Shown here piece by piece: positions 19,177-32,291 of a DNA stretch of 64,000 nt. The notes below the pieces were generated by a model that had not been told where the DNA came from, made no database searches, and saw nothing but the letters and a program-made list of their open reading frames with translations. Position numbers and translations under genes: made by a program. The DNA comes from Acetobacterium woodii DSM 1030 (lineage in GTDB: Bacteria > Bacillota > Clostridia > Eubacteriales > Eubacteriaceae): positions 620,001-684,000 of the forward strand of contig NC_016894.1 in assembly GCF_000247605.1 (NCBI RefSeq), in the 5' to 3' direction. How positions within the stretch are numbered: the stretch's first letter is position 1; the number at the start of each line of letters is the position of its first letter.

Positions 19177-19666
19177 TTTTAATAACTTTCAGATAAATAA
19201 TCCCGATAATCAGGGCCAGAAATGCCAAAATGGTACCCCCAATTATTTTCAGCGAGGAAACGGATTCTTCGTTGGAATAACCGGTTTTTACCACGGAGAT
19301 GGAAGCACAGTGAATATCCATATCACCGCCGTGTTCAACACAGGCCCGGTTAAAGATGCCAGTGATCTGAAGCTGATCGCCAATATGTTTATAATCCCCG
19401 AAGACGCCAATGCTTTGGGCATCTTCAGTACGCATCCAGATTCCCATGGCATTACTGCCATCATTGATATTCACCCAGGCGTGATCGCCCCGTACCATCA
19501 CTTCACCAATCGCTTCACCGGTAACGGTGACGGTTTGGCCATCGCTTACTTCGGGGTTTTCAACAAGCTGATTGAGTTCAATGATATCGCTGGCAAAGAC
19601 CCCTTCGGTCAGGCAAAAAAGCAGACCCATGGTAATCAGAAATAAGGTTATTGTTTTGTTAAACAT
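19163..19666 (-). CDS. membrane-anchored OB-fold-like protein of the Trk operon
   Basis: A 167-residue protein with a signal peptide (residues 1-25, ending GVFAS), an extracytoplasmic OB-like beta-barrel domain (about 30-130; GQTVTVTGEAIGEV, WVNINDGS and GDQLQITG resemble strands of the nucleic-acid-binding OB family but face outside), and a C-terminal membrane helix (about 140-160) with a KKSDA tail. The start overlaps the end of trkH by 19 bases, so it belongs to the potassium operon. I know of no defined function for such a protein; modulation of TrkH is possible. Confidence 0.65.
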   Translation of the reverse strand: MFNKTITLFLITMGLLFCLTEGVFASDIIELNQLVENPEVSDGQTVTVTGEAIGEVMVRGDHAWVNINDGSNAMGIWMRTEDAQSIGVFGDYKHIGDQLQITGIFNRACVEHGGDMDIHCASISVVKTGYSNEESVSSLKIIGGTILAFLALIIGIIYLKVIKKSDA

Positions 19667-21177
19667 TTTTTGAGGCCTCCAATGATAAACCCGATCAGGG
19701 CGAAAACAGAAAGGAATTCCAGTCGCCCTAAATACATGGCAATGATATCGTAGATTTTCAAAATAGCTGGCATATCAGGTGTAGTTATGCCGATCGACAG
19801 ACCGACATTTCCGGTAATGGAGGCTGCTTCAAAGGCGGCACTGGCCAGCGGATAACCGCAAAAGGTACCGATTAATGTTCCGCTGGCAAAGGTGATCAAA
19901 TAACAAATGATGATCAGAGCGGAGGCTTTTACCAGACCATCGGTCAGAATCTGATCTTTGATGTGATGGAAACGAAAGACTTTGACATTGCGTTCCGAAG
20001 ATAACAAACGTTTTACATCGGTAAAAATACTTTTAAAAACGATGCCGATCCGCAGTCCTTTAAAACCGCCGGCAGTGGAACAGGCCGAACCGCCAATAAG
20101 CATCACAATGATCATTACCAGAATTCCGAAGTCACCCCATTCCAACGCGAATTGGCGGGCATAAATCGAACCAAATCCGGTGGTCGTGTGAGCAGACAAG
20201 ACATTATAAACAACCCGTCGAAATATTGAGACGGCATCGGCATAAACGTCGGTTCGGGCCAGCCACAGGACCGCCAGAGCACTGGCCAGAAATGAGGTGA
20301 TAAAAAAACTCTGCGTTTCGATATTTTTCAGCAATTCTTTTTTGTTACCGGAAAAAACAGCGTGGTGTAGACCAAAATTTAATGAACCCAGAATAAAAAA
20401 GATCATCGTAATTATTTCATAGGAAAAGCTGTGGTAATACATTATATTTTGACTATAGGGAGCAAAACCGCCGGTGCTCCAGGAAGAGGCAAAAATAAAT
20501 AAGCCATTAAAAAATGCCGACAGGGGAGAAAGTCCGATGACCATTCCGTCAATCCACAATGCGGCAGTTCCAATGACCAGATAAACCAGACTGATTTTCC
20601 AAATGATCCGGGCCGTGCCTTTAACATTGGGGACAAGTTCGATATCTTTGGCTTCGCCCACATAAAAGATATAGGCACCGCCGGTTTCCTTTAATAAAAA
20701 GGTCAGTGCCAGCACAATCATCCCCTGACCGCCAATAAACGTGATCATGTGACGCCACATATTTAAACTGAGCGAGATATGATCCAAATCCTGGGTCAAT
20801 ACCATTCCAGTGGTGGTAAAACCACTCATCACATCAAAGCAGGCGTCCAGAATCGAATTGACGTGCCCGCTAAGTAAATAGGGGATGGCACATAAAAACA
20901 TCAAGATGATCCAGGATAGCGAGGCCACGACAAAACCATGTTTCCACTGAACAAAGTTTTTGTTCAAACGGGTTTCTTTTCCGATGATAATGAGAGAAAA
21001 TCCCAGAATAATAGAAATCGCCATAGTAATAATAAAGTCCCAAAAGGGATTCCATTCTTGCAGTCCCACCGCTGTTAAGATGGGAAGAATCATGAGCAGG
21101 GCGATGCCCAGAACAACATAACCGGTATAATAACTGATGATTAAGATACTGTAAAAACGTCCGTTAAAAGTATTCAT
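19648..21177 (-). CDS. trkH: TrkH/KtrB-family potassium uptake channel subunit
   Basis: A 509-residue membrane protein with the four membrane-pore-membrane repeats of the Trk/Ktr superfamily. Selectivity-filter segments are visible around GFTTTGMV, SWSTGGFAP, HTTTGFGS and SITGNVGLSIG, together with GGSACSTAGGFKGLRIGI. It translocates K+ (perhaps with Na+ or H+) under gating by cytoplasmic TrkA-type rings. Both TrkA proteins are encoded upstream in the same operon. Its ATG lies seven bases after the small-peptide stop codon with a weak ribosome binding site, so translation is likely coupled. This is the only plausible complete K+ importer in the window, given the kdp decay. Confidence 0.92.
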   Translation of the reverse strand: MNTFNGRFYSILIISYYTGYVVLGIALLMILPILTAVGLQEWNPFWDFIITMAISIILGFSLIIIGKETRLNKNFVQWKHGFVVASLSWIILMFLCAIPYLLSGHVNSILDACFDVMSGFTTTGMVLTQDLDHISLSLNMWRHMITFIGGQGMIVLALTFLLKETGGAYIFYVGEAKDIELVPNVKGTARIIWKISLVYLVIGTAALWIDGMVIGLSPLSAFFNGLFIFASSWSTGGFAPYSQNIMYYHSFSYEIITMIFFILGSLNFGLHHAVFSGNKKELLKNIETQSFFITSFLASALAVLWLARTDVYADAVSIFRRVVYNVLSAHTTTGFGSIYARQFALEWGDFGILVMIIVMLIGGSACSTAGGFKGLRIGIVFKSIFTDVKRLLSSERNVKVFRFHHIKDQILTDGLVKASALIIICYLITFASGTLIGTFCGYPLASAAFEAASITGNVGLSIGITTPDMPAILKIYDIIAMYLGRLEFLSVFALIGFIIGGLKKCLTKQ

Positions 21178-21184
21178 GGCAATA

Positions 21185-21286
21185 TTAGATAAACAAAAGG
21201 ATCAGCACAAAAAATAAAAAAATATATGCTGATACTGACAGCAGTTCGATTATCAGTCCCAGGACTTCATTTTTTCGTGATGTCAT
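21185..21286 (-). CDS. 33-residue single-helix membrane peptide in the trk operon
   Basis: An ORF of 33 codons: a short polar start (MTSRKNEVLG) followed by about 20 hydrophobic residues (leucine, isoleucine, phenylalanine and valine) ending in FI. A perfect GAGGAGG ribosome binding site lies seven bases before its ATG. The ATG overlaps the last codons of the upstream trkA in another frame, and the stop lies seven bases before trkH. The strong SD, the overlap and the membrane-helix composition argue that it is real. By position and size it recalls KdpF, the small stabilising subunit of the Kdp pump, but I recognise no homology. Confidence 0.65.
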   Translation of the reverse strand: MTSRKNEVLGLIIELLSVSAYIFLFFVLILLFI

Positions 21287-21953
21287 TTTGTTTTCCTCCT
21301 CGGAATAGATGCGCTTTTATTTTGGTTAAAGCAGTATTATTGGTAATCACCAACACCTTGTCATTTTCCATAAATTGAGTATTTCCTCTGGGGTAAATAA
21401 CGGTCTCATCTCTGAGGATGGAAGTGATGACACATTCGGCAGGTAAGTCGATGTTGTGAATATACTGATTACACCATCTGTCATCACGATGAATCGTAAT
21501 TTCCACAAGAATCATCGAGCCGCGTTCAAAGGTATGGATCAGTTTGAAATGATCTTTATCAAATTCGTATTCGATGAGATTGGCAATCACCTCGGTGCTG
21601 CAAACTGTTTTATCCACCCCTAGCGCCTTGAACATCGAAATATTCTTGGGATTATTGATTCGGGCGATGGTTTTGTTGATGTCAAAACTGAGTTTGGCAA
21701 TTTCACAAATTACCAGATTTTCTTCATCGCTCCCGGTTACGGCGGCAATAATCTCGGCTTCCTGGATGCCAGCATCTTTTAAAACTTCCAGATCAGTGCC
21801 GTCGCCGCAAATAATTTCGGCATCAATGTCGGCCGCAATTTTTTGACAAATGGTAGGGTTGCGTTCAATTAAGATAACATGATACCCTCTTCTTTGAAGA
21901 GTCTGGAGCAGGTAATAACCAACCTTTCCGCCGCCAATAATGAGTGATTTCAT
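21267..21953 (-). CDS. trkA: TrkA-type potassium channel regulatory subunit (second)
   Basis: A 228-residue RCK protein. The Rossmann TrkA-N domain (residues 1-135) opens with IIGGGKVGYYLLQTL, a GXGXXG-like nucleotide loop, and has an acidic ribose-binding position in VILIERN. A TrkA-C domain follows (about 140-220). It binds NAD(H) or adenine nucleotides and gates TrkH. Its start overlaps the stop of the preceding trkA (ATGA type), and its end overlaps the small membrane peptide. Confidence 0.9.
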   Translation of the reverse strand: MKSLIIGGGKVGYYLLQTLQRRGYHVILIERNPTICQKIAADIDAEIICGDGTDLEVLKDAGIQEAEIIAAVTGSDEENLVICEIAKLSFDINKTIARINNPKNISMFKALGVDKTVCSTEVIANLIEYEFDKDHFKLIHTFERGSMILVEITIHRDDRWCNQYIHNIDLPAECVITSILRDETVIYPRGNTQFMENDKVLVITNNTALTKIKAHLFRGGKQNDITKK

Positions 21954-22603
21954 AATGTTATCTCCTTAGCCAATGCGATAAGGAGTTTTTCCTTATCCTT
22001 TTTATGAATAGTGCAGATAATTTTTGTACCGTAAGGAACCAGTTCATCTGGTTTAGGGAAAATAAAATTATCGGCCACGATTAAACCGGACAGAATACAG
22101 TTGAACTTTGCTTCGATGCCGGCGACGGTATAAGGTTTATGTTTTTTAACGGTCAGTTCAAGAATTTCAGTGTCCTTTTGGATCACCGTGAGCACTTCCA
22201 CATTTTTTTCGGAGATCTTCCGCTTAAAGATTTCAACCCCCAGTTGGGTGGGACAAATGGTTTCAATCCCCAGTAGATCATAAATGTGTTTTTTATTATG
22301 ATCTCCAACGCGGGCAATGATTCGTGGGACATTGTAAATTTTCTTGGCAATCAGAGATACGGTAATATTGATATTGTCATCAGCAGTTACTGCTAAAACA
22401 AAATGGGCCTGTTTGATTCCGGCTTCCAGCAGGCGATCATTATCATATTCAATGCCTTTAAATTTTGCGCCGTTAAAACCGCCGCCGAGGACGTTCAATT
22501 TTTCGCTGTCATGATCAATGACGGAAATGTCGTGGCCAGTAAGGGATAATTCTTTGGCTAAGGTGCTGCCCAGCTTGCCGCAGCCAATAATAATGATATA
22601 CAT
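21950..22603 (-). CDS. trkA: TrkA-type potassium channel regulatory subunit (first)
   Basis: A 217-residue RCK protein with IIIIGCGKLGSTLAKEL at the N-terminus, SVIDHD as the ribose-binding strand, and a TrkA-C domain at the end. I chose the ATG at 22603 because GAGGAG stands at the right distance and the Rossmann strand begins directly there; an upstream in-frame start at 22618 would overlap the ribosome binding site. It is the first gene of the minus-strand potassium operon. Two TrkA chains may form a mixed ring or act as alternative regulators. Confidence 0.9.
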   Translation of the reverse strand: MYIIIIGCGKLGSTLAKELSLTGHDISVIDHDSEKLNVLGGGFNGAKFKGIEYDNDRLLEAGIKQAHFVLAVTADDNINITVSLIAKKIYNVPRIIARVGDHNKKHIYDLLGIETICPTQLGVEIFKRKISEKNVEVLTVIQKDTEILELTVKKHKPYTVAGIEAKFNCILSGLIVADNFIFPKPDELVPYGTKIICTIHKKDKEKLLIALAKEITL

Positions 22604-25488: not shown

Positions 25489-25638
25489 TTGACAAAACTA
25501 GTGATGTATGGTACAATTTACTTGTAAAATATTAAAATGAAATATTTATGTGTACTAGACAATAGTATCACGAATAACTGGATAAATCAATGGTTTTAAT
25601 AAAAAACAGGTGTTGTTTAAGAAACAACACCTGTTTTT
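25489..25638 (+). ncRNA. candidate small RNA or leader: strong promoter followed by strong terminator
   Basis: TTGACA (25489-25494), a 17-base spacer and TACAAT (25512-25517) form a near-consensus promoter. A perfect terminator follows: AAAAAACAGGTGTTGTTT (25601-25618) pairs with AAACAACACCTGTTTTTT across a two-to-four-base loop. Between them there is no ORF with a ribosome binding site. The predicted transcript of roughly 115 bases would be a free small RNA or an attenuated leader of the TPR-kdp unit that starts at 25813. No other element was found in the 25383-25812 gap. Confidence 0.5.
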
Positions 25639-25812
25639 TATTTACCTTCTGGCAAATATATTGATAAACAATGGCAGAATGTAATTTTGCGACATAAAGC
25701 AGCTTCTTAATGTAATCTTTATCCTCTGATAGCGATTCAATATGCTAAATTAATTAAAAAATAAATATAATAAATCTATAAAGTAATACATTTAATTCAG
25801 GAGGATAAGAAG

Positions 25813-26199
25813 ATGGATCAAGTGAATGCCTTTGAAGAGTATATGGCTGCCGCCAAAAAGGCGTTAAAGGCTGGTGACTATCGTTTAGCGGAAGAAAAAA
25901 TTAAAAGTGCCATGAATGAAAATCCGCACTCCCCAAGGGTGCATAACCTGTATGGTATTTTGGAAGAATTATTAAAAGAAGATAATTTGGCCCACAAACA
26001 TTATCAGGTTGCCATTGCTTTAGACCCTGCTTATAAGCCGGCAATGAGAAATCTGGAAAGAATTTCGACTTTCGAAGAACATGCCATAAAAGCACATATT
26101 GATTTTGGCGATGATCCGGAACAATCGGAGGAAGAGTTATACATTATTGAATATGACCAGAATCATGTCGGGCATCTGCGAAAAAAAGGCAGAAAGTAA
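25813..26199 (+). CDS. TPR-repeat protein upstream of kdpF
   Basis: A 128-residue protein with one and a half tetratricopeptide repeats (residues about 8-75; typical AKKALKAGDYRLAEEKI and HYQVAIALDPAYKPAMRNL spacing) and a charged C-terminal tail ending GHLRKKGRK. AGGAGGATAAGA precedes the ATG. Its stop codon is five bases before kdpF, so it is part of the kdp transcript. TPR repeats mediate protein contacts; no partner is evident. Confidence 0.7.
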   Translation: MDQVNAFEEYMAAAKKALKAGDYRLAEEKIKSAMNENPHSPRVHNLYGILEELLKEDNLAHKHYQVAIALDPAYKPAMRNLERISTFEEHAIKAHIDFGDDPEQSEEELYIIEYDQNHVGHLRKKGRK

Positions 26200-26204
26200 G
26201 AAAG

Positions 26205-26294
26205 ATGAAGGTCGGTTTAGTCATTTCAGGGCTGATTGAAGGGGTGTTACTGATTTGTCTGGGAGTGGTATTATTTAAAGCGGTAGAATTATGA
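26205..26294 (+). CDS. kdpF: KdpF-like small membrane subunit
   Basis: A 29-residue single-helix peptide with a glycine/valine start and a hydrophobic core (VLLICLGVVLFKAV). In Kdp operons KdpF (about 29 residues) precedes kdpA and stabilises the KdpFABC complex. Here its stop overlaps the ATG of the kdpA remnant in the ATGA manner, exactly the expected junction. The ribosome binding site is weak. It may be translated, but with no KdpA left it has no obvious partner. Confidence 0.6.
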   Translation: MKVGLVISGLIEGVLLICLGVVLFKAVEL

Positions 26295-26419
26295 GTCAGG
26301 GGATATTAGTGGGCAGCGCATATCTGGGGATACGTTTAATCGGGACATTGAGTTTTTTTGCAACGCTGGCTTTTAGGCCTGCTATCGATTATTTTGTAGC
26401 TATAAATGGAGTTGATTGA
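26291..26419 (+). pseudogene. kdpA: kdpA remnant (C-terminal 42 codons only)
   Basis: A 42-codon ORF whose end, GTLSFFATLAFRPAIDYF, aligns with the last membrane helix and tail of KdpA (consensus GALTFFPALALGPIVEH). Intact KdpA has about 560 residues with four pore repeats, so more than 90% is missing and no pore remains. The fragment runs from just after kdpF into the kdpB start (overlap 14 bases), as in an intact operon. A large in-frame deletion that fused the kdpF-proximal ATG region to the kdpA 3' end explains it. The K+ pathway is therefore gone. Confidence 0.7.
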
Positions 26420-28478
26420 TGTGGAAAATAATGAGTCGAAGAAAAACATCTTAATCGCAGCAATCAGGCAATCCTTTATCAAATTATCACCGCGGCGACA
26501 GCTAAAAAATCCGGTGATATTTGTGGTTTTTAGTGGGGCAATCATGACGACCACGCTTTATGGTCTGAGCTTTGTTCAGATCAAAAGCGAAGGTGCCAAC
26601 GATATCCTGATCATCACCTTAATACTCTGGCTTACGGTTTTATTTGCGAATTTTGTCGAAGCTATTGCCGAAGGCCGGGGTCGCGCTCAAACCGATAGTT
26701 TGCGGCGAACCCGAAAAGATGTAAAAGTGCGAAAGCTGAATGACTGGTCTGATTTGGCACTTTATACAGAGGTTAAGCTAAATCGTTTGAAAAAGGGTGA
26801 TCTTGTTTATGTGAAATCTGGCGAACTAATCCCCTTAGATGGGAATGTTATCGAAGGGACGGCTTTAGTGGATGAAAGTGCGATCACAGGAGAAGCGGCT
26901 CCGGTGCTCCGAGAATCACGAGAGGGTTATCGTGCGGTTAGTGGGGGAAGCAAGCTTTTATCGGATTGGCTGGTCATTCAGGTGACGGTTGAAAATAGTG
27001 AGCGTTTTTGGGATAAAATGATTATGCTGGCTAGAGAGTCAGCGCGAAAGAAAACGCCCAATGCGTTCGCCGTGCAGATTTTTCTGATGACTCTGACAAT
27101 TATCTTTCTGGTAGTTGGGGTTATCTTGCTGCCGTCTTCTTATTTTTTTGGTGAACAAGCAGGTACTGGTGCGGCGATATCGCTCACTTATGTCATCGCT
27201 TTGCTGGTTTGTCTGGCTCCGACAACGATGGGGGCGCTGCTTTCACCGATGGGAATTGCCGGTATGAATCGGCTGCAACAGGTTAATGTGCTGGCTAAAA
27301 GCGGCAGCGCCATTGAGGCGGCTGGGAATGTGGATGTATTATTGTTGGATAAAACCGGGATAATTACGCGGGGAAATCGACAGGCCAGTGTTTTTATCCC
27401 AATAACCGGGGTCACTGAAAAAGAGCTGGCGGTAGCGTCGCAATTAGCTTCTCTGGCCGACGAAACGGCGGAAGGGCGAAGTATTGTGGTTTTGGCCAAG
27501 GAACGGTTTGATCTGCGGGAGCGGGACATGAAAGCATTGGGAGCGAGTTGCGTGGCATTAACGGAAAAAGCCCCAATAAGTGGTATCAATTATCGCGGAA
27601 ATGAGCTTCGTAAAGGGGCTGCCGAAGCGATCAAAGCCTTCGTTTTGGGCAACGGTGGCAATTATCCGCAAGAATGCCATGAGATTGCCCAAAAGGTGGC
27701 AAATGATGGGGGAATCCCACTGGTTGTGGCAAAAAACAAGCGGGTGCTGGGGGTAATTTACCTGAAAGATGTTGGCGAAAATGAGATCAAGGAACGTTTT
27801 GAAGATTTACGCCAAATGGGCGTCAAAACGATCATGATTACCAGTGACAATCCGATGACGGCAGCCGCTATTGCGGCTGAAGCTGGAGTCGATGATTTTC
27901 TGGCTGGAGCTACTCCGGATACTAAGCTGGCACTGATCCGAAATTATCAGGCGCAGGGACAGCAGGTAGCAGTGTCCGGGAATGAAACCAAGGATATATC
28001 AGCCCTGATCCAGGCCGATGTAGCAGTGGCGATGAATACCAGTGCTACGGCGGTTAAAGAAGCTGGAAACATGATAGATCTGGATTCCAATCCCACCAAA
28101 CTCATCGAGATTGTCCGGATTGGAAAACAATTACTGATGACCAGAGGGGCATTGACAACCTTTAGCGTGGCGAATGATCTGGCAGAATATTTTGCGCTTA
28201 TTCCGGTTTTGTTTTACAATATTTATCAACCATTAGCAAGGCTGAATATATTGGGGTTAACCAGTGTAAAAAATGCCATCTTGGTAGTGCTTAGTTATAA
28301 TGTGTTGCTTATTATTGCGATGATTCCTTTGGTTTTAAAGGGCGGTAAGGATCAAGGAAGGGTGACGGCAAAATGGTTTGAAAAAAACAGGCTGATTGAT
28401 GGCTTAGGGGGTTTATTAACTCCATTTGTAGCGATTAAATTACTGAATATGTTGTTAACGGCGCTGGGTCTTGAGTGA
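26406..28478 (+). CDS. kdpB: degenerate KdpB-like P-type ATPase
   Basis: A 690-residue homologue of the catalytic subunit of the KdpFABC potassium pump, full length (E. coli KdpB is 682 residues; positions align with an offset of +8). The phosphorylated Asp315 survives, but DKTGT is DKTGI. The hinge GDGTND is GNETKD (524-530 reads SGNETKD). TGES is TGEA (161-164). TGDN is TSDN (479-482). The TM5 Lys needed for coupling (E. coli Lys586) is Glu594, and the adenine-stacking Phe377 position is Leu385. KdpA and KdpC are destroyed on either side. It cannot pump K+ as KdpFABC. Relaxed selection or a new non-transport role are both possible; the ORF itself is intact. Confidence 0.85.
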   Translation: MELIDVENNESKKNILIAAIRQSFIKLSPRRQLKNPVIFVVFSGAIMTTTLYGLSFVQIKSEGANDILIITLILWLTVLFANFVEAIAEGRGRAQTDSLRRTRKDVKVRKLNDWSDLALYTEVKLNRLKKGDLVYVKSGELIPLDGNVIEGTALVDESAITGEAAPVLRESREGYRAVSGGSKLLSDWLVIQVTVENSERFWDKMIMLARESARKKTPNAFAVQIFLMTLTIIFLVVGVILLPSSYFFGEQAGTGAAISLTYVIALLVCLAPTTMGALLSPMGIAGMNRLQQVNVLAKSGSAIEAAGNVDVLLLDKTGIITRGNRQASVFIPITGVTEKELAVASQLASLADETAEGRSIVVLAKERFDLRERDMKALGASCVALTEKAPISGINYRGNELRKGAAEAIKAFVLGNGGNYPQECHEIAQKVANDGGIPLVVAKNKRVLGVIYLKDVGENEIKERFEDLRQMGVKTIMITSDNPMTAAAIAAEAGVDDFLAGATPDTKLALIRNYQAQGQQVAVSGNETKDISALIQADVAVAMNTSATAVKEAGNMIDLDSNPTKLIEIVRIGKQLLMTRGALTTFSVANDLAEYFALIPVLFYNIYQPLARLNILGLTSVKNAILVVLSYNVLLIIAMIPLVLKGGKDQGRVTAKWFEKNRLIDGLGGLLTPFVAIKLLNMLLTALGLE

Positions 28479-28479
28479 G

Positions 28480-28684
28480 GTGAAGAAGATAAAAAAAGCA
28501 AAAGAAAATCCAAAGTTTAAAATTGCCTTCAGCATCGTTTCATTTTCTGGTACTGACTGAGATTTGGGGGATGATTTATCCGGTTAGTGTAATAAATACT
28601 GCACAAATTGCATTTCCAAATCAGGCAAATGGTAGTATCATTATAATATCAGTGGCAGAATGGATGGATATATTTAGTAAATAA
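28480..28684 (+). pseudogene. kdpC: kdpC pseudogene, frameshifted and truncated
   Basis: Starting two bases after kdpB, one frame (28480-28560) gives a basic start and ends at TGA. A second frame from about 28540 continues with FLVLTEIWGMIYPVSV and TAQIAFPNQANGSI, which match the KdpC membrane helix and the hallmark FP.QANGS motif. The match stops near residue 45 of about 190; nothing of the periplasmic domain remains. A single frameshift near 28540 joins the frames. The end abuts the palindromic element at 28675-28867, whose insertion may have accompanied loss of the rest of the gene. Confidence 0.75.
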
Positions 28685-28867
28685 TATAGGTAATTATGAA
28701 AGTAAAAAACATCGAACAACGGTTGCTTTGGGTGCAGTTTCCACAAACAATTTTGTAACGTGTAGGCGAACCGTTCATCGAACTGTCCGCCGTACCGTGT
28801 AGAAATTGTTTCGTGCGAAACTGGGCCCGAAGCTCACGGCATTTTCGCAATTACCTAGTAAATAATA
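28675..28867. repeat. MITE-like element A1 in the kdp ruin
   Basis: A 169-base element (28687-28855) is bounded by inverted ends TAGGTAATTATGAAA and TTTTCGCAATTACCTA and is imperfectly palindromic throughout. It is flanked by a 12-base direct repeat, TAGTAAATAATA (28675-28686 and 28856-28867). It encodes nothing. The right end shares CCC-AA-CTCACGGC...GCAATTACCTA with the element at 42062-42122. The direct repeat and inverted ends indicate transposition by a transposase in trans. Confidence 0.75.
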
Positions 28868-28888
28868 CAGATGAAGGTAGGGAATTAA

Positions 28889-31600
28889 ATGGCGATTTTC
28901 AGTGATACCCGTCCGAATCCTGATGATATTTCAGCAGGTTTGTTTATAAAAGAACAAAACAAAAAAGGGCGGCTGGAAATCTTTTTTGGATATGCCGCCG
29001 GAGTGGGGAAAACCTATGCCATGCTCGACGATGCCCAGGAGCAAATAAAGTGTGGGGTGGATGTTCTGGTCGGATATGTAGAAGAACATACACATCCGGA
29101 AACTGTCCAATTAATTAGTGGATTACCGGCTTTGCCGCCTAAAATTGTTGAATATCGTAAGATCAGACTAAAGGAATTTGATTTGGACGCTGCTCTCGAA
29201 CGAAAACCCGATCTGATTTTGGTTGATGAGTTAGCACATACTAATGCTCCGGGAACGCGCAACAAAAAAAGATATCAGGATATCGAAGAACTGTTAAATG
29301 CCGGAATTGATGTTTTTACGACGGTCAATGTGCAGCATCTGGAAAGTCTCAATGATGTGGTTCAAAAAATCACTTGGGTTGATGTCAAAGAAACAATACC
29401 GGATTACATATTTAATCAGGCTGACAAAATTCGCCTGATTGACATTGAACCGGATGAATTGTTGAGACGATTTGAAGGTGGGAAAATTTACCGAACGGAA
29501 CGGACCCAAAAATCTCAGGATGATTTTTTTATCCGAGAAAATCTCCGCTTGCTTCGGGAAATCGCGATGCGAAAAGCGGCCAATCGGATTAGTACCGATA
29601 ATCAGAATGAACCCCGGCTGTCAAAAAAAATGGCCAATACCAAATTGATGGTTTGTATCAGCGCATCACCCTCTTCGGCACGCTGTATTCGCTGGACAAA
29701 TCGGACGGCTGAAGCGTTTCGGGCACCTTGGACAGCCGTTTATGTTGAAGCTATGGATAGTGATGTGATGACCGATGCAGAAAAAGATGCCGTTCGGGAT
29801 AATCTGGTTTTGGCAGAGCGACTAGGGGCCGAGATCGTCACCCTCAATGGGCACGATGTGGCGACCGTGATTGCCGAATACGCTAAGCTGTCGGGGATTA
29901 CCAATATTGTTATCGGAAAAAGCCGGAATAAAAAATCGCTGCTTAGTTATTTAAAAGCAAGTCTTGAAGAAAAACTGATTGCGATGTTGCCCAGCATTGA
30001 AATTCATATTATCCCAGGTGACCCTGGAAAAAATAACAGTGCGTTGTATCAGCAGCGGCGATTGAGGATCAGCGGGAGTTTGTTCTTTACTTGGCAGGAC
30101 GGGTTAAAAACCCTGCTGATTATTGTGATCGCAACAGCTATTTCATTAATTCTTCAGGCACTGAACATTAGTGATCAGAATATCATTATGGTTTATATTC
30201 TATCGGTATTGATTGTTTCACGAGTAACGACAGGTTATGTTTATGGTATTCTAACTTCATGTCTGACGGTGCTTGTTTTTAACTATTTTTTTACGATCCC
30301 TTATTATACGCTGCATGCAATTCAGCCGGGATACCCCATTACTTTCGTGATTATGTTACTGGTGGCATTAATCACCAGTGCCTTGACGGTGCGGATAAAA
30401 ACTCAGGCCCATTTGGCAGTAGAACGGGAACACCGTACCGAGGTGCTTTATGAAATCAATAAAAAATTGCTGGCATCACGGGATTTAAAAGAAACGATCC
30501 AACTGATCAATGTCTATATGGTCAAGATTTTTGGCCGGTCAGCGATCTTTTACCATCAGGACCCGAAAGATCTTGAATCAGAAACGTTTCAACAATCAGC
30601 GTTAGATAGTGATGCTTCTTTTCTGATGTCAGAAAGTGAGCGAGCGGTGGCACACTGGGTATTCATGAATAAAAAGTGTGCCGGTGCCGGAACGGATACC
30701 TTGATGGGGGCCGGTGCTTTTTATATGCCCATTGTATCGCAGAGTAAGGTGCTTGGCATAATCGGATTGTCTTGTGCAGATGGCGTTCTTAACCAGAATA
30801 ATCGCTTGTTTTTAAGAATGATTGCTTCACAGGTCGAGATGGCCTTGGAGCGTCATTATCTTTCCAATGAACAAAGACGGATGATCGTTGAAGCGGAGAA
30901 GGAAAAAATGCGAAGTAATCTGCTTAGAGGCATATCTCATGATCTGCGGACACCGCTCACGGGGATTTTAGGGTCAAGCTCGGCGATTTTGGAAAATGGC
31001 CAAACGATGGATCAGGATACTCAGGATACCTTGTTATTTAATATCCGAGAGGATTCCCAGTGGCTGATTCGGATGGTCGAAAACTTGTTGTCAGTTACTC
31101 GAATTAATGAAGGCCCTATGAATGTCACAAAAACACCGGAAGCAGTTGAAGAAATTGTGGCAGAGGCGATTAGTCGAATCCGTAAACGTTTTGTGAACCG
31201 GAAAATTAAAGTCAAGGTGCCGGAGCAGCTCTTAATTGTACCGATGGATGGTACCCTGATTGAGCAGGTGCTGATCAATTTGCTTGAAAATGCGATCAAA
31301 TACTCACCGGAGGACTCGGTTATTGAGGTTGAGGTGAAAAAAAATGAGAATGCGGCGGAGTTTGAAGTAAAAGATCAGGGCAAAGGGATTAGTGATCAGG
31401 ATTTTCCGTATCTATTTGAGACCGCTGTTCCAGATGGCAAACGGAGTTCTGATTCGTCTCGGGGGATGGGGATCGGGTTATCTATTTGTAATTCCATTGT
31501 CAAGGCACATCATGGAGAAATGGCAGCTCAAAATAGGCTAAGCGGAGGTTCAATTTTCCAGTTTACTTTACCATTGGAGGAGGAAAGCAAAAATGGATAA
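28889..31600 (+). CDS. kdpD: KdpD sensor histidine kinase
   Basis: A 903-residue protein with full KdpD layout. The N-terminal KdpD domain has Walker A GYAAGVGKTYAM (residues about 31-42) and Walker B LILVDELAHTNAPGT. A USP-like domain lies at about 245-375, four membrane helices at about 405-505, GAF-like at about 525-660, HisKA with GISHDLRTPLTGILG near 690, and HATPase with an N box (LLENAIKYSPED) and G boxes (GKGISDQDF, GMGIGLS). It senses K+ limitation and turgor and phosphorylates KdpE. It overlaps kdpE by eight bases. The sensor looks intact although its pump genes are ruined. Confidence 0.95.
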   Translation: MAIFSDTRPNPDDISAGLFIKEQNKKGRLEIFFGYAAGVGKTYAMLDDAQEQIKCGVDVLVGYVEEHTHPETVQLISGLPALPPKIVEYRKIRLKEFDLDAALERKPDLILVDELAHTNAPGTRNKKRYQDIEELLNAGIDVFTTVNVQHLESLNDVVQKITWVDVKETIPDYIFNQADKIRLIDIEPDELLRRFEGGKIYRTERTQKSQDDFFIRENLRLLREIAMRKAANRISTDNQNEPRLSKKMANTKLMVCISASPSSARCIRWTNRTAEAFRAPWTAVYVEAMDSDVMTDAEKDAVRDNLVLAERLGAEIVTLNGHDVATVIAEYAKLSGITNIVIGKSRNKKSLLSYLKASLEEKLIAMLPSIEIHIIPGDPGKNNSALYQQRRLRISGSLFFTWQDGLKTLLIIVIATAISLILQALNISDQNIIMVYILSVLIVSRVTTGYVYGILTSCLTVLVFNYFFTIPYYTLHAIQPGYPITFVIMLLVALITSALTVRIKTQAHLAVEREHRTEVLYEINKKLLASRDLKETIQLINVYMVKIFGRSAIFYHQDPKDLESETFQQSALDSDASFLMSESERAVAHWVFMNKKCAGAGTDTLMGAGAFYMPIVSQSKVLGIIGLSCADGVLNQNNRLFLRMIASQVEMALERHYLSNEQRRMIVEAEKEKMRSNLLRGISHDLRTPLTGILGSSSAILENGQTMDQDTQDTLLFNIREDSQWLIRMVENLLSVTRINEGPMNVTKTPEAVEEIVAEAISRIRKRFVNRKIKVKVPEQLLIVPMDGTLIEQVLINLLENAIKYSPEDSVIEVEVKKNENAAEFEVKDQGKGISDQDFPYLFETAVPDGKRSSDSSRGMGIGLSICNSIVKAHHGEMAAQNRLSGGSIFQFTLPLEEESKNG

Positions 31601-32291
31601 TAAATCAGTTATTCTAATTGTGGAGGACGAAATGGGGATTGCCAACTTTATTGCGGCGATACTAAAAGCAAATGATTATAAAATGATTAAAGCCGTTACC
31701 GGAAAAGAAGCGATCTCAATGGCGGCATCCTATTCCCCGGATCTAATCCTGCTTGATTTGGGATTGCCGGATATCGATGGGATGGATGTGTTAAAAACCA
31801 TCCGGGTATGGTCAAATATCCCGATAGTTGTGGTATCGGCACGCGGGCATGAACGGGAAAAGGTGGAAGCCCTGGATTTGGGAGCGGATGATTATATTAC
31901 CAAACCTTTCGGCACGGCCGAGTTACTAGCAAGAATCCGGACGGGAATTCGTCACAGTCCTAAAAATAGGGGAGCGGATACTTTAGCAATGAGTTGTCTG
32001 GTTATTGGGGATCTTACCATTGACTATGATAAACGGGTAGTGACCGTGGCTGAAAAAGCGATCCATTTGACGCCCATTGAATATAAGATTATGGTACTGC
32101 TTTCAAAAAATATCGGGAAAGTGCTGACTCACGATACGATTATCCGGGAAGTATGGGGTCCCTATACTAACGAGATTCAGGCTTTACGGGTGAATATGGC
32201 CAATATTCGCAGAAAAATTGAAGAAAATCCGGCCGAACCCAAATATATAGTAACTCAGGTTGGGGTCGGTTATCGGATGGTGGAAGAATAA
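31593..32291 (+). CDS. kdpE: KdpE response regulator
   Basis: A 232-residue OmpR-type regulator. The receiver has the acidic pair in VEDEMG, the phosphoacceptor Asp in LILLDLGLPDIDG (about residue 54), Ser/Thr in VVVSARG and Lys in ITKPFG. A winged-helix DNA-binding domain (about 130-230) ends with VGVGYRMVE. It is translated with kdpD (eight-base overlap). Its classical target, the kdp promoter, no longer controls a functional pump; the trk operon carries a box resembling its site at 22689-22705. Confidence 0.95.
   Translation: MDNKSVILIVEDEMGIANFIAAILKANDYKMIKAVTGKEAISMAASYSPDLILLDLGLPDIDGMDVLKTIRVWSNIPIVVVSARGHEREKVEALDLGADDYITKPFGTAELLARIRTGIRHSPKNRGADTLAMSCLVIGDLTIDYDKRVVTVAEKAIHLTPIEYKIMVLLSKNIGKVLTHDTIIREVWGPYTNEIQALRVNMANIRRKIEENPAEPKYIVTQVGVGYRMVEE

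What the first reader, a model, noticed from the sequence alone, without database searches (positions are those of the whole stretch)
26205..28684. A kdp operon whose transport genes are ruined while kdpD and kdpE stay intact
Seen: kdpF is followed by a 42-codon ORF matching only the C-terminus of KdpA, a full-length kdpB, and a kdpC that is frameshifted and ends after about 45 residues. Intact kdpD and kdpE follow. Known: KdpFABC needs KdpA for the K+ path and KdpC for function. Inferred: the pump is gone but the sensor-regulator pair is kept, perhaps rewired to another target such as the trk operon.
Basis: partly seen in the sequence, partly recalled or inferred. Interest (0 to 1): 0.75.

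Follow-up and report, generated by a model that had tools for sequence, protein, structure and literature searches.

The report
Dead potassium pump, living potassium sensor
This bacterium has lost a potassium pump but keeps the pump's sensor and switch, possibly because they also control another potassium importer, which makes it a natural experiment on what that sensor does without its pump.

Summary
G000's operon reads TPR-kdpF-kdpA'-kdpB-kdpC'-MITE-kdpD-kdpE; 10 of 18 congeners keep KdpA. kdpA' is an in-frame internal deletion; kdpC is frameshifted, deleted and carries a MITE. It changed at 129 of 540 sites invariant in 8 relatives, late evolution is not distinguishable from neutral, yet no stop is seen (5-6.5 expected). 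kdpD and kdpE show no relaxation, nor does KdpD's N-terminal serine-kinase domain, whose known target serine in KdpB is gone. A likely reason: a box matching E. coli KdpE half-sites precedes trkAAH. Its 17-mer core has 14 exact hits in 19 genomes, all before trk, a KimA-like gene or an orphan kdpD. The trk link would then predate pump loss. Against: three genomes have the box without a close KdpE, and with mismatches allowed the reversed control pattern is as frequent. Nothing was tested at the bench.

The parts
19648..21177 (-). trkH, open
   Evidence: PF02386 E=5e-36; omega on G000 branch .087 vs .082 elsewhere, 5 taxa
21267..21953 (-). trkA2, open
   Evidence: omega .140 vs .075, p=.051
21950..22603 (-). 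trkA1, first gene of the trk operon
   Evidence: PF02254 E=5e-21; start codon
22689..22707 (-). putative KdpE box of the trk promoter, TCTTTATACAAACTTTATA; a further TTTATA 21 bp upstream of the core
   Evidence: exact 19-mer in 10 of 19 genomes; context; half-sites as in E. coli KdpE
25705..25723 (+). putative KdpE box of the kdp operon, TCTTAATGTAATCTTTATC
   Evidence: conserved in the 9 operons aligned; not found in G003
25813..26199 (+). 128-aa TPR-like gene, first gene of the operon, not relaxed
   Evidence: TPR Pfam hits, all below cut-off; omega .091 vs .160, p=.15
26205..26294 (+). kdpF, 29 codons
   Evidence: alignment with 7 relatives; no Pfam hit
26291..26419 (+). kdpA remnant: in-frame internal deletion, ~14 N-terminal codons joined to ~24 C-terminal codons plus four
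26406..28478 (+). kdpB, open frame without intact active-site motifs (a GTG at 26421 behind a conserved GGAG is a likely alternative start, my reading)
28480..28686 (+). kdpC remnant, frameshifted, body deleted
   Evidence: PF02669 E=1.5e-7 on 28523-28681
28687..28855 (.). MITE-like element inserted in the kdpC scar; target duplications 28675-28686 and 28856-28867
   Evidence: 48 matches in own genome; flanks and ends
28889..31600 (+). kdpD, open, all five segments tested under purifying selection
31593..32291 (+). kdpE, open

Best explanation
Shown: on the G000 lineage kdpA and kdpC were destroyed and kdpB lost catalytic motifs, while kdpD, kdpE, the TPR-like first gene and the operon's upstream box were kept. 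Inferred: KdpD still senses K+ status and phosphorylates KdpE, and KdpE-P binds TTTATA-N5-TTTATA-type boxes before trkAAH and before its own operon, switching on Trk and sustaining its own expression. This is an ancestral second branch of the KdpDE regulon that outlived the pump. kdpB is a relict; its frame is perhaps kept open because translation through it spares the downstream kdpDE from polarity, or is open by luck.
For: Omega on the G000 branch versus elsewhere: kdpB .265/.054 (p=2e-29), kdpD .091/.093, kdpE .068/.063. Five kdpD segments are unrelaxed, p=.42-.78. A two-epoch model puts about the last 23% of the branch (t_post .383 of 1.69) at omega 1 for kdpB; the same kind of fit, with class values fixed, gives t_post .0001.007 and .0001 for control branches G002, G004 and G001. 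Box: TTTATACAAWCTTTAYA has 14 exact hits in 19 genomes against ~0.15 expected in 65 Mb by a first-order Markov model: trk 8, KimA-like 5, orphan kdpD 1. E. coli KdpE half-sites are TTTATA and TTTACA, 5 bp apart (PMC3264566, passages); G010 and G018 carry exactly these before the KimA-like gene. In G003 the box heads an operon KimA-like-kdpA-kdpB(split)-C-D-E, and in G005 and G015 KimA-like-kdpDE. The box is exact in 10 of 10 genomes with a close kdpE (77-100% identity) and in 3 of 9 without (0.003 by hand, kinship ignored). The residues aligned with E. coli KdpE R193, R200 and T215, needed for DNA binding, are the same (a chain offset of two is my inference). Of 8 genomes with the trk locus, the 6 with KdpDE have open trkA1, trkA2 and trkH and the 2 without have broken trk.
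Against: Three of 13 genomes with an exact box lack a close KdpE at E<=1e-45 (G006, G014, G018). G009 (81% complete) has kdpA, kdpB and part of a close kdpD at a contig end but no box; counting it as a KdpE genome weakens the co-occurrence to 10 of 11 against 3 of 8 (0.024 by hand). With mismatches allowed the reversed control pattern is as frequent: 16 control against 18 true hits at <=1 mismatch, 17 against 16 at <=2; the tool gives no exact count for the control, so the case rests on the exact hits and their setting. Only 5 of 11 KimA-like matches have the box. The box may overlap a -35 region and be plain promoter. In G000 a GATAAT-like element behind the box reads GGTAAT, though it also varies elsewhere. 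The trk-KdpDE co-loss rests on 8 related genomes and, in G014, on one stop in a draft. In M. smegmatis trk genes fell at low K+ in wild type and mutants alike (PMC5401905, passages). No expression or binding data were available for this strain.
Confidence: 0.58

Rival explanations
1. Plain decay caught midway: kdpDE is simply next to go, and the kdpB frame is open by chance.
For: Post-loss omega of kdpB is not distinguishable from 1 (free value .43, lnL gain 1.17). Changes are spread over invariant sites (129 of 540), and membrane segments are not spared more than in neutral simulation (58 changes, simulated mean 55.5). Loss of the whole TPR-kdp operon is seen in G014.
Against: kdpD and kdpE show no relaxation while kdpB collected an estimated 263 neutral substitutions; 5.1-6.5 stops were expected and none seen (P .006-.0015). 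One of 400 simulations had zero stops, but these treated all 186 changes as neutral and so overstate the expectation somewhat.
Confidence: 0.2
2. KdpB is a pseudo-ATPase with a new job, for example a membrane partner of KdpD.
For: Open frame without stop or internal indel. Adding the stop penalty to the fit favours weak constraint (omega .43) over neutrality by about 6-8 log units (my rough sum). Changes at invariant sites are uneven along the protein, p=.002, a post hoc test. A KdpD-KdpB interaction is mentioned in PMC11018627 (passages).
Against: Constraint on amino acids is at best weak; membrane segments change much as in neutral simulation (new charged residues 4, simulated mean 7.2; per change.07 of simulations as low); the serine that KdpD modifies is gone.
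Confidence: 0.12
3. The trk/KimA box is bound by another OmpR-family regulator, and KdpDE is kept for an unrelated target.
For: Box present without close KdpE in G006, G014 and G018.
Against: Box heads operons that contain kdpDE in G003, G005 and G015, and orphan kdpD in G018 (exact) and G010 (one mismatch); it matches published KdpE half-sites.
Confidence: 0.22
4. Sequencing or assembly artefact.
For: No reads examined.
Against: Several independent lesions (deletions, frameshifts, MITE, 186 of 687 residues changed in kdpB) cannot be one error, and the genome is one contig.
Confidence: 0.02

Closest known systems
KdpFABC/KdpDE of E. coli
   Same: gene order F-A-B-C-D-E; KdpD and KdpE domains; KdpE half-site sequence and 5-bp spacing
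   Different: pump dead here; putative KdpE boxes at trk, whereas a 2013 review calls Trk constitutive and Kdp the only known K+ system strongly controlled by transcription (PMC3610689, passages)
Francisella tularensis SchuS4 kdp operon
   Same: kdpA pseudogene with kdpD kept
   Different: there kdpE is also a pseudogene and kdpB, kdpC are listed as present (PMC6584805 Table 3, passages); here kdpE is open and kdpB lacks catalytic motifs
KdpD as tandem serine-histidine kinase (E. coli, D. geothermalis)
   Same: N-terminal KdpD domain with Walker A kept
   Different: its known substrate residue, KdpB Ser162, is absent here (PMC11018627, passages)
kdpFABC under a c-di-AMP riboswitch in B. thuringiensis
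   Same: pump and KdpDE need not go together
   Different: there the pump is kept without kdpDE (PMC6488665, start of abstract in listing); here the reverse, and no Rfam match in 15000-40000

Membership tests
functional KdpFABC pump | full KdpA pore subunit | tested here: not met
   no PF03814 match in G000; 42-codon remnant
functional KdpFABC pump | P-type ATPase motifs DKTGT and GDGTNDAPAL in KdpB | tested here: not met
   DKTGI and GNETKDISAL; the 8 compared relatives keep both
functional KdpFABC pump | full KdpC | tested here: not met
KdpDE two-component system | KdpD: KdpD, Usp, DUF4118, HisKA, HATPase domains; KdpE: receiver and Trans_reg_C | tested here: met
   these above cut-off (GAF below)
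KdpDE two-component system | KdpE DNA-binding residues R193, R200, T215 | tested here: met
   alignment to 4kny; residue numbers from PMC3264566, offset inferred
KdpDE two-component system | K+-responsive phosphorylation and transcription | not testable with these tools
   needs bench work
KdpE operator (trk promoter) | two TTTAYA half-sites 5 bp apart | tested here: met
   TTTATA-CAAAC-TTTATA; binding itself not tested
KdpE operator (kdp operon) | half-sites beginning TT, 5 bp apart | tested here: met
   TTAATG-TAATC-TTTATC; the first half-site deviates from TTTATA
neutral pseudogene (kdpB) | no amino-acid constraint after loss | tested here: inconclusive
   omega 1 not rejected, free fit .43
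neutral pseudogene (kdpB) | stops or frameshifts in proportion to divergence | tested here: not met
   0 seen, 5.1-6.5 stops expected
c-di-AMP-binding KdpD Usp domain | (A/G/C)XSXSX2N(Y/F) | tested here: inconclusive
   CXSXS present but S at the N position; the older SXS-X20-FTAXY is met with W for F

The most novel reading that the evidence does not exclude
KdpDE in this genus is a general K+-uptake regulator that directly activates Trk and some KimA-like importers, and the N-terminal serine kinase of KdpD has a conserved role that does not need KdpB: in G000 it remains under full constraint although pump and target serine are gone.
Probability: 0.33. Interest if true: 0.75.

Novelty: new variant of a known kind. 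Interest (0 to 1): 0.55.

Why it matters
KdpDE is best known as the switch of the Kdp pump, and Trk as constitutive (PMC3610689, passages). A strain in which evolution removed the pump but kept the switch lets one ask, without first making a pump mutant, what KdpDE controls besides Kdp and what KdpD's recently described serine-kinase domain does when its target in KdpB is absent. It also offers a concrete operator and target (trkAAH) to test.

Tried and rejected
Rejected: assembly artefact (many independent lesions); a second kdpA elsewhere; a known riboswitch in 15000-40000 (no Rfam match at gathering score); an internal or MITE-borne promoter for kdpDE as an argument (11 promoter-like sites in 25500-28950 against 8.3 in shuffles, uninformative). 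The kdp-type box with 3 mismatches gave many hits (20 in G000 against 9 for the reversed control; list cut short) and was not used to predict targets. G000's one other site within 2 mismatches of the trk box lies inside a coding frame. Other K+ importers of G000 beyond KdpA, the KimA-like gene (none at E<=1e-60) and this trk were not searched.

Rows left out of the codon fits: G003 (kdpB split), G009 (short contig) and the 48%-identical second copies of G005 and G015. Nine genomes were fitted for kdpB, kdpD, kdpE and TPR, five for trkH and six for seven other flanking genes. One of nine flanking genes, HDGYP2, was accelerated in G000 (.138 vs .080, p=.006), and trkA2 was near threshold. Leave-one-out: 4-12 changes at invariant sites in other lineages against 129-134 in G000. 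G006 is 86% complete, so its lack of KdpDE is weaker evidence.

Full report
Observation. The window lies at G000:C1:620001-684000 of a one-contig genome. The operon reads TPR-like gene, kdpF, kdpA remnant, kdpB, kdpC remnant, MITE-like element, kdpD, kdpE. Among 19 genus genomes (G000 included) 10 have a KdpA at E<=1e-3, G000 none; 12 have a KdpD at E<=1e-100. In G001, G002, G004, G010, G016 and G017 the order is TPR-kdpA-B-C-D with kdpE behind, and a small kdpF-like frame precedes kdpA in the alignment.

The lesions. kdpA lost its middle: the remnant starts with the KdpA start and about 14 codons and continues, in frame, with a block that in three relatives begins at residue 538 of 562. kdpC has two single-base gaps against four relatives, then a large deletion up to its stop region. 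A MITE-like element then landed in the scar: its 12-bp duplication contains the kdpC 3' end, so the deletion came first (my reading). The element has 48 matches in G000, with 40 of 179 candidate places scored, and matches in 17 of 19 genomes.

kdpB. The 690-aa frame has no internal indel against its near relatives. Over 687 aligned codons 186 residues differ from the inferred ancestor, 129 of them at the 540 sites invariant in 8 relatives; other lineages show 4-12 such changes. Lost: DKTGT (to DKTGI), GDGTNDAPAL (to GNETKDISAL), TGDN (to TSDN) and the lysine aligned with K586 of the solved KdpB (to E) (the roles of these residues are recalled). TGES is TGEA; that alone need not inactivate, since a solved KdpB chain (7bgy) carries TGEA too, and Ser162 is the inhibitory phosphosite (PMC9651954, start of abstract in listing).

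Selection. Codon models (my own implementation, nine genomes) give omega .265 for kdpB on the G000 branch against .054 elsewhere; kdpD and kdpE do not differ. With three site classes, the best account with two branch parameters is a last stretch at omega 1 (lnL -9650.25, against -9652.96 for a relaxation exponent; no change, -9849.51). Three control branches show no such stretch. The stretch implies about 263 substitutions and 5.1-6.5 stop mutations; none is present (P .006-.0015). Freeing the late omega gives .43 with a lnL gain of 1.17, not significantly below 1. So amino-acid constraint is gone or weak while the frame is open. kdpF, kdpA' and kdpB are all open and overlap, which would fit protection of kdpDE from polarity; this is inference.

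Why the regulator stays. The operon's upstream box TCTTAATRKAATCTTTATC is present in the nine aligned operons, G000 included, and missing in G003. A related box, TCTTTATACAAACTTTATA, lies upstream of trkA1 in G000 and relatives. Its core TTTATACAAWCTTTAYA has 14 exact hits in 19 genomes, ~0.15 expected by a first-order Markov model of the window. All 14 precede K+ genes: trk in G000, G001, G002, G004, G006, G014, G016, G017; a KimA-like permease (name recalled; Pfam AA_permease_2) in G003, G005, G010, G015, G018; an orphan kdpD in G018. A further TTTAT[AG] lies 21 bp upstream in the 13 trk and KimA-like promoters. E. coli KdpE binds TTTATA and TTTACA 5 bp apart, with the first two T invariant across genera (PMC3264566, passages). 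In G000 both boxes end 86-90 bp before the start codon. The exact core is in 10 of 10 genomes with a kdpE of 77-100% identity and in 3 of 9 without.

Against. With mismatches allowed, hits do not outnumber the reversed control: 18 against 16 at one mismatch, 16 against 17 at two; exact counts of the control are not given. G006 and G014 have the trk box but no KdpD or close KdpE, and G018 has kdpD but no close KdpE. G009, an incomplete genome, has kdp genes but no box. Five of 11 KimA-like matches have the box. In G014 the whole TPR-kdp operon is absent between its usual neighbours and trkA2 has a premature stop; in G006 most of trkA1 to trkH is deleted. The six genomes with this trk and KdpDE keep trk open. 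That fits a link, but the genomes are few and related.

KdpD. A 2024 paper assigns the N-terminal domain a serine-kinase activity on KdpB Ser162 and also recalls a role in the phosphatase (PMC11018627, passages). In G000 that domain shows omega .072 against .060 (p=.57), 4 of 157 invariant sites changed, Walker A kept. So it probably does something besides inhibiting the pump; control of the KdpE phosphatase is the conservative reading.

Literature. F. tularensis SchuS4 is a partial precedent (passages). Searches for 'Acetobacterium woodii'+potassium+kdp (four papers), Acetobacterium+KdpD (none), KdpDE+orphan+kdpFABC, KdpE+trk+regulon+'binding site', KdpD+KdpE+kdpFABC+pseudogene, KdpDE+trkH+ktr, KdpE+kimA and KdpE+trkA+'KdpE binding'+promoter showed, by listing and the passages read, no report of KdpE boxes at trk or kimA. 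Most of the listed papers were not opened, and the library lacks most subscription papers.

Noticed in passing
28687-28855: A ~169-bp MITE-like family with AGGTAATT-type ends, 48 matches in G000 and matches in 17 of 19 genus genomes; G002 seems to carry a related fragment at the same kdpC-kdpD junction (by eye).
   Followed up: partly
25813-26199: A 128-aa TPR-like protein heads the kdp operon in the 9 genomes aligned, is not relaxed in G000 and is gone together with kdp in G014: a candidate unnamed Kdp accessory or output gene.
   Followed up: partly
L081, L082: Orphan kdpD-like genes (67% identity) in G018 and G010 with two box-like repeats upstream and no kdpE seen beside them.
   Followed up: partly
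L065: In G003 kdpB is split by a 514-aa ORF, perhaps a transposase (not searched), while kdpD and kdpE stay open: possibly a second, fresh case of pump loss.
   Followed up: no
L063, L064: G005 and G015 have a second kdp operon with the regulator genes upstream and an extra 112-aa ORF between kdpB and kdpC.
   Followed up: no
L153, L154: trk operons are broken in the two genomes that have the trk box but lack KdpDE.
   Followed up: partly
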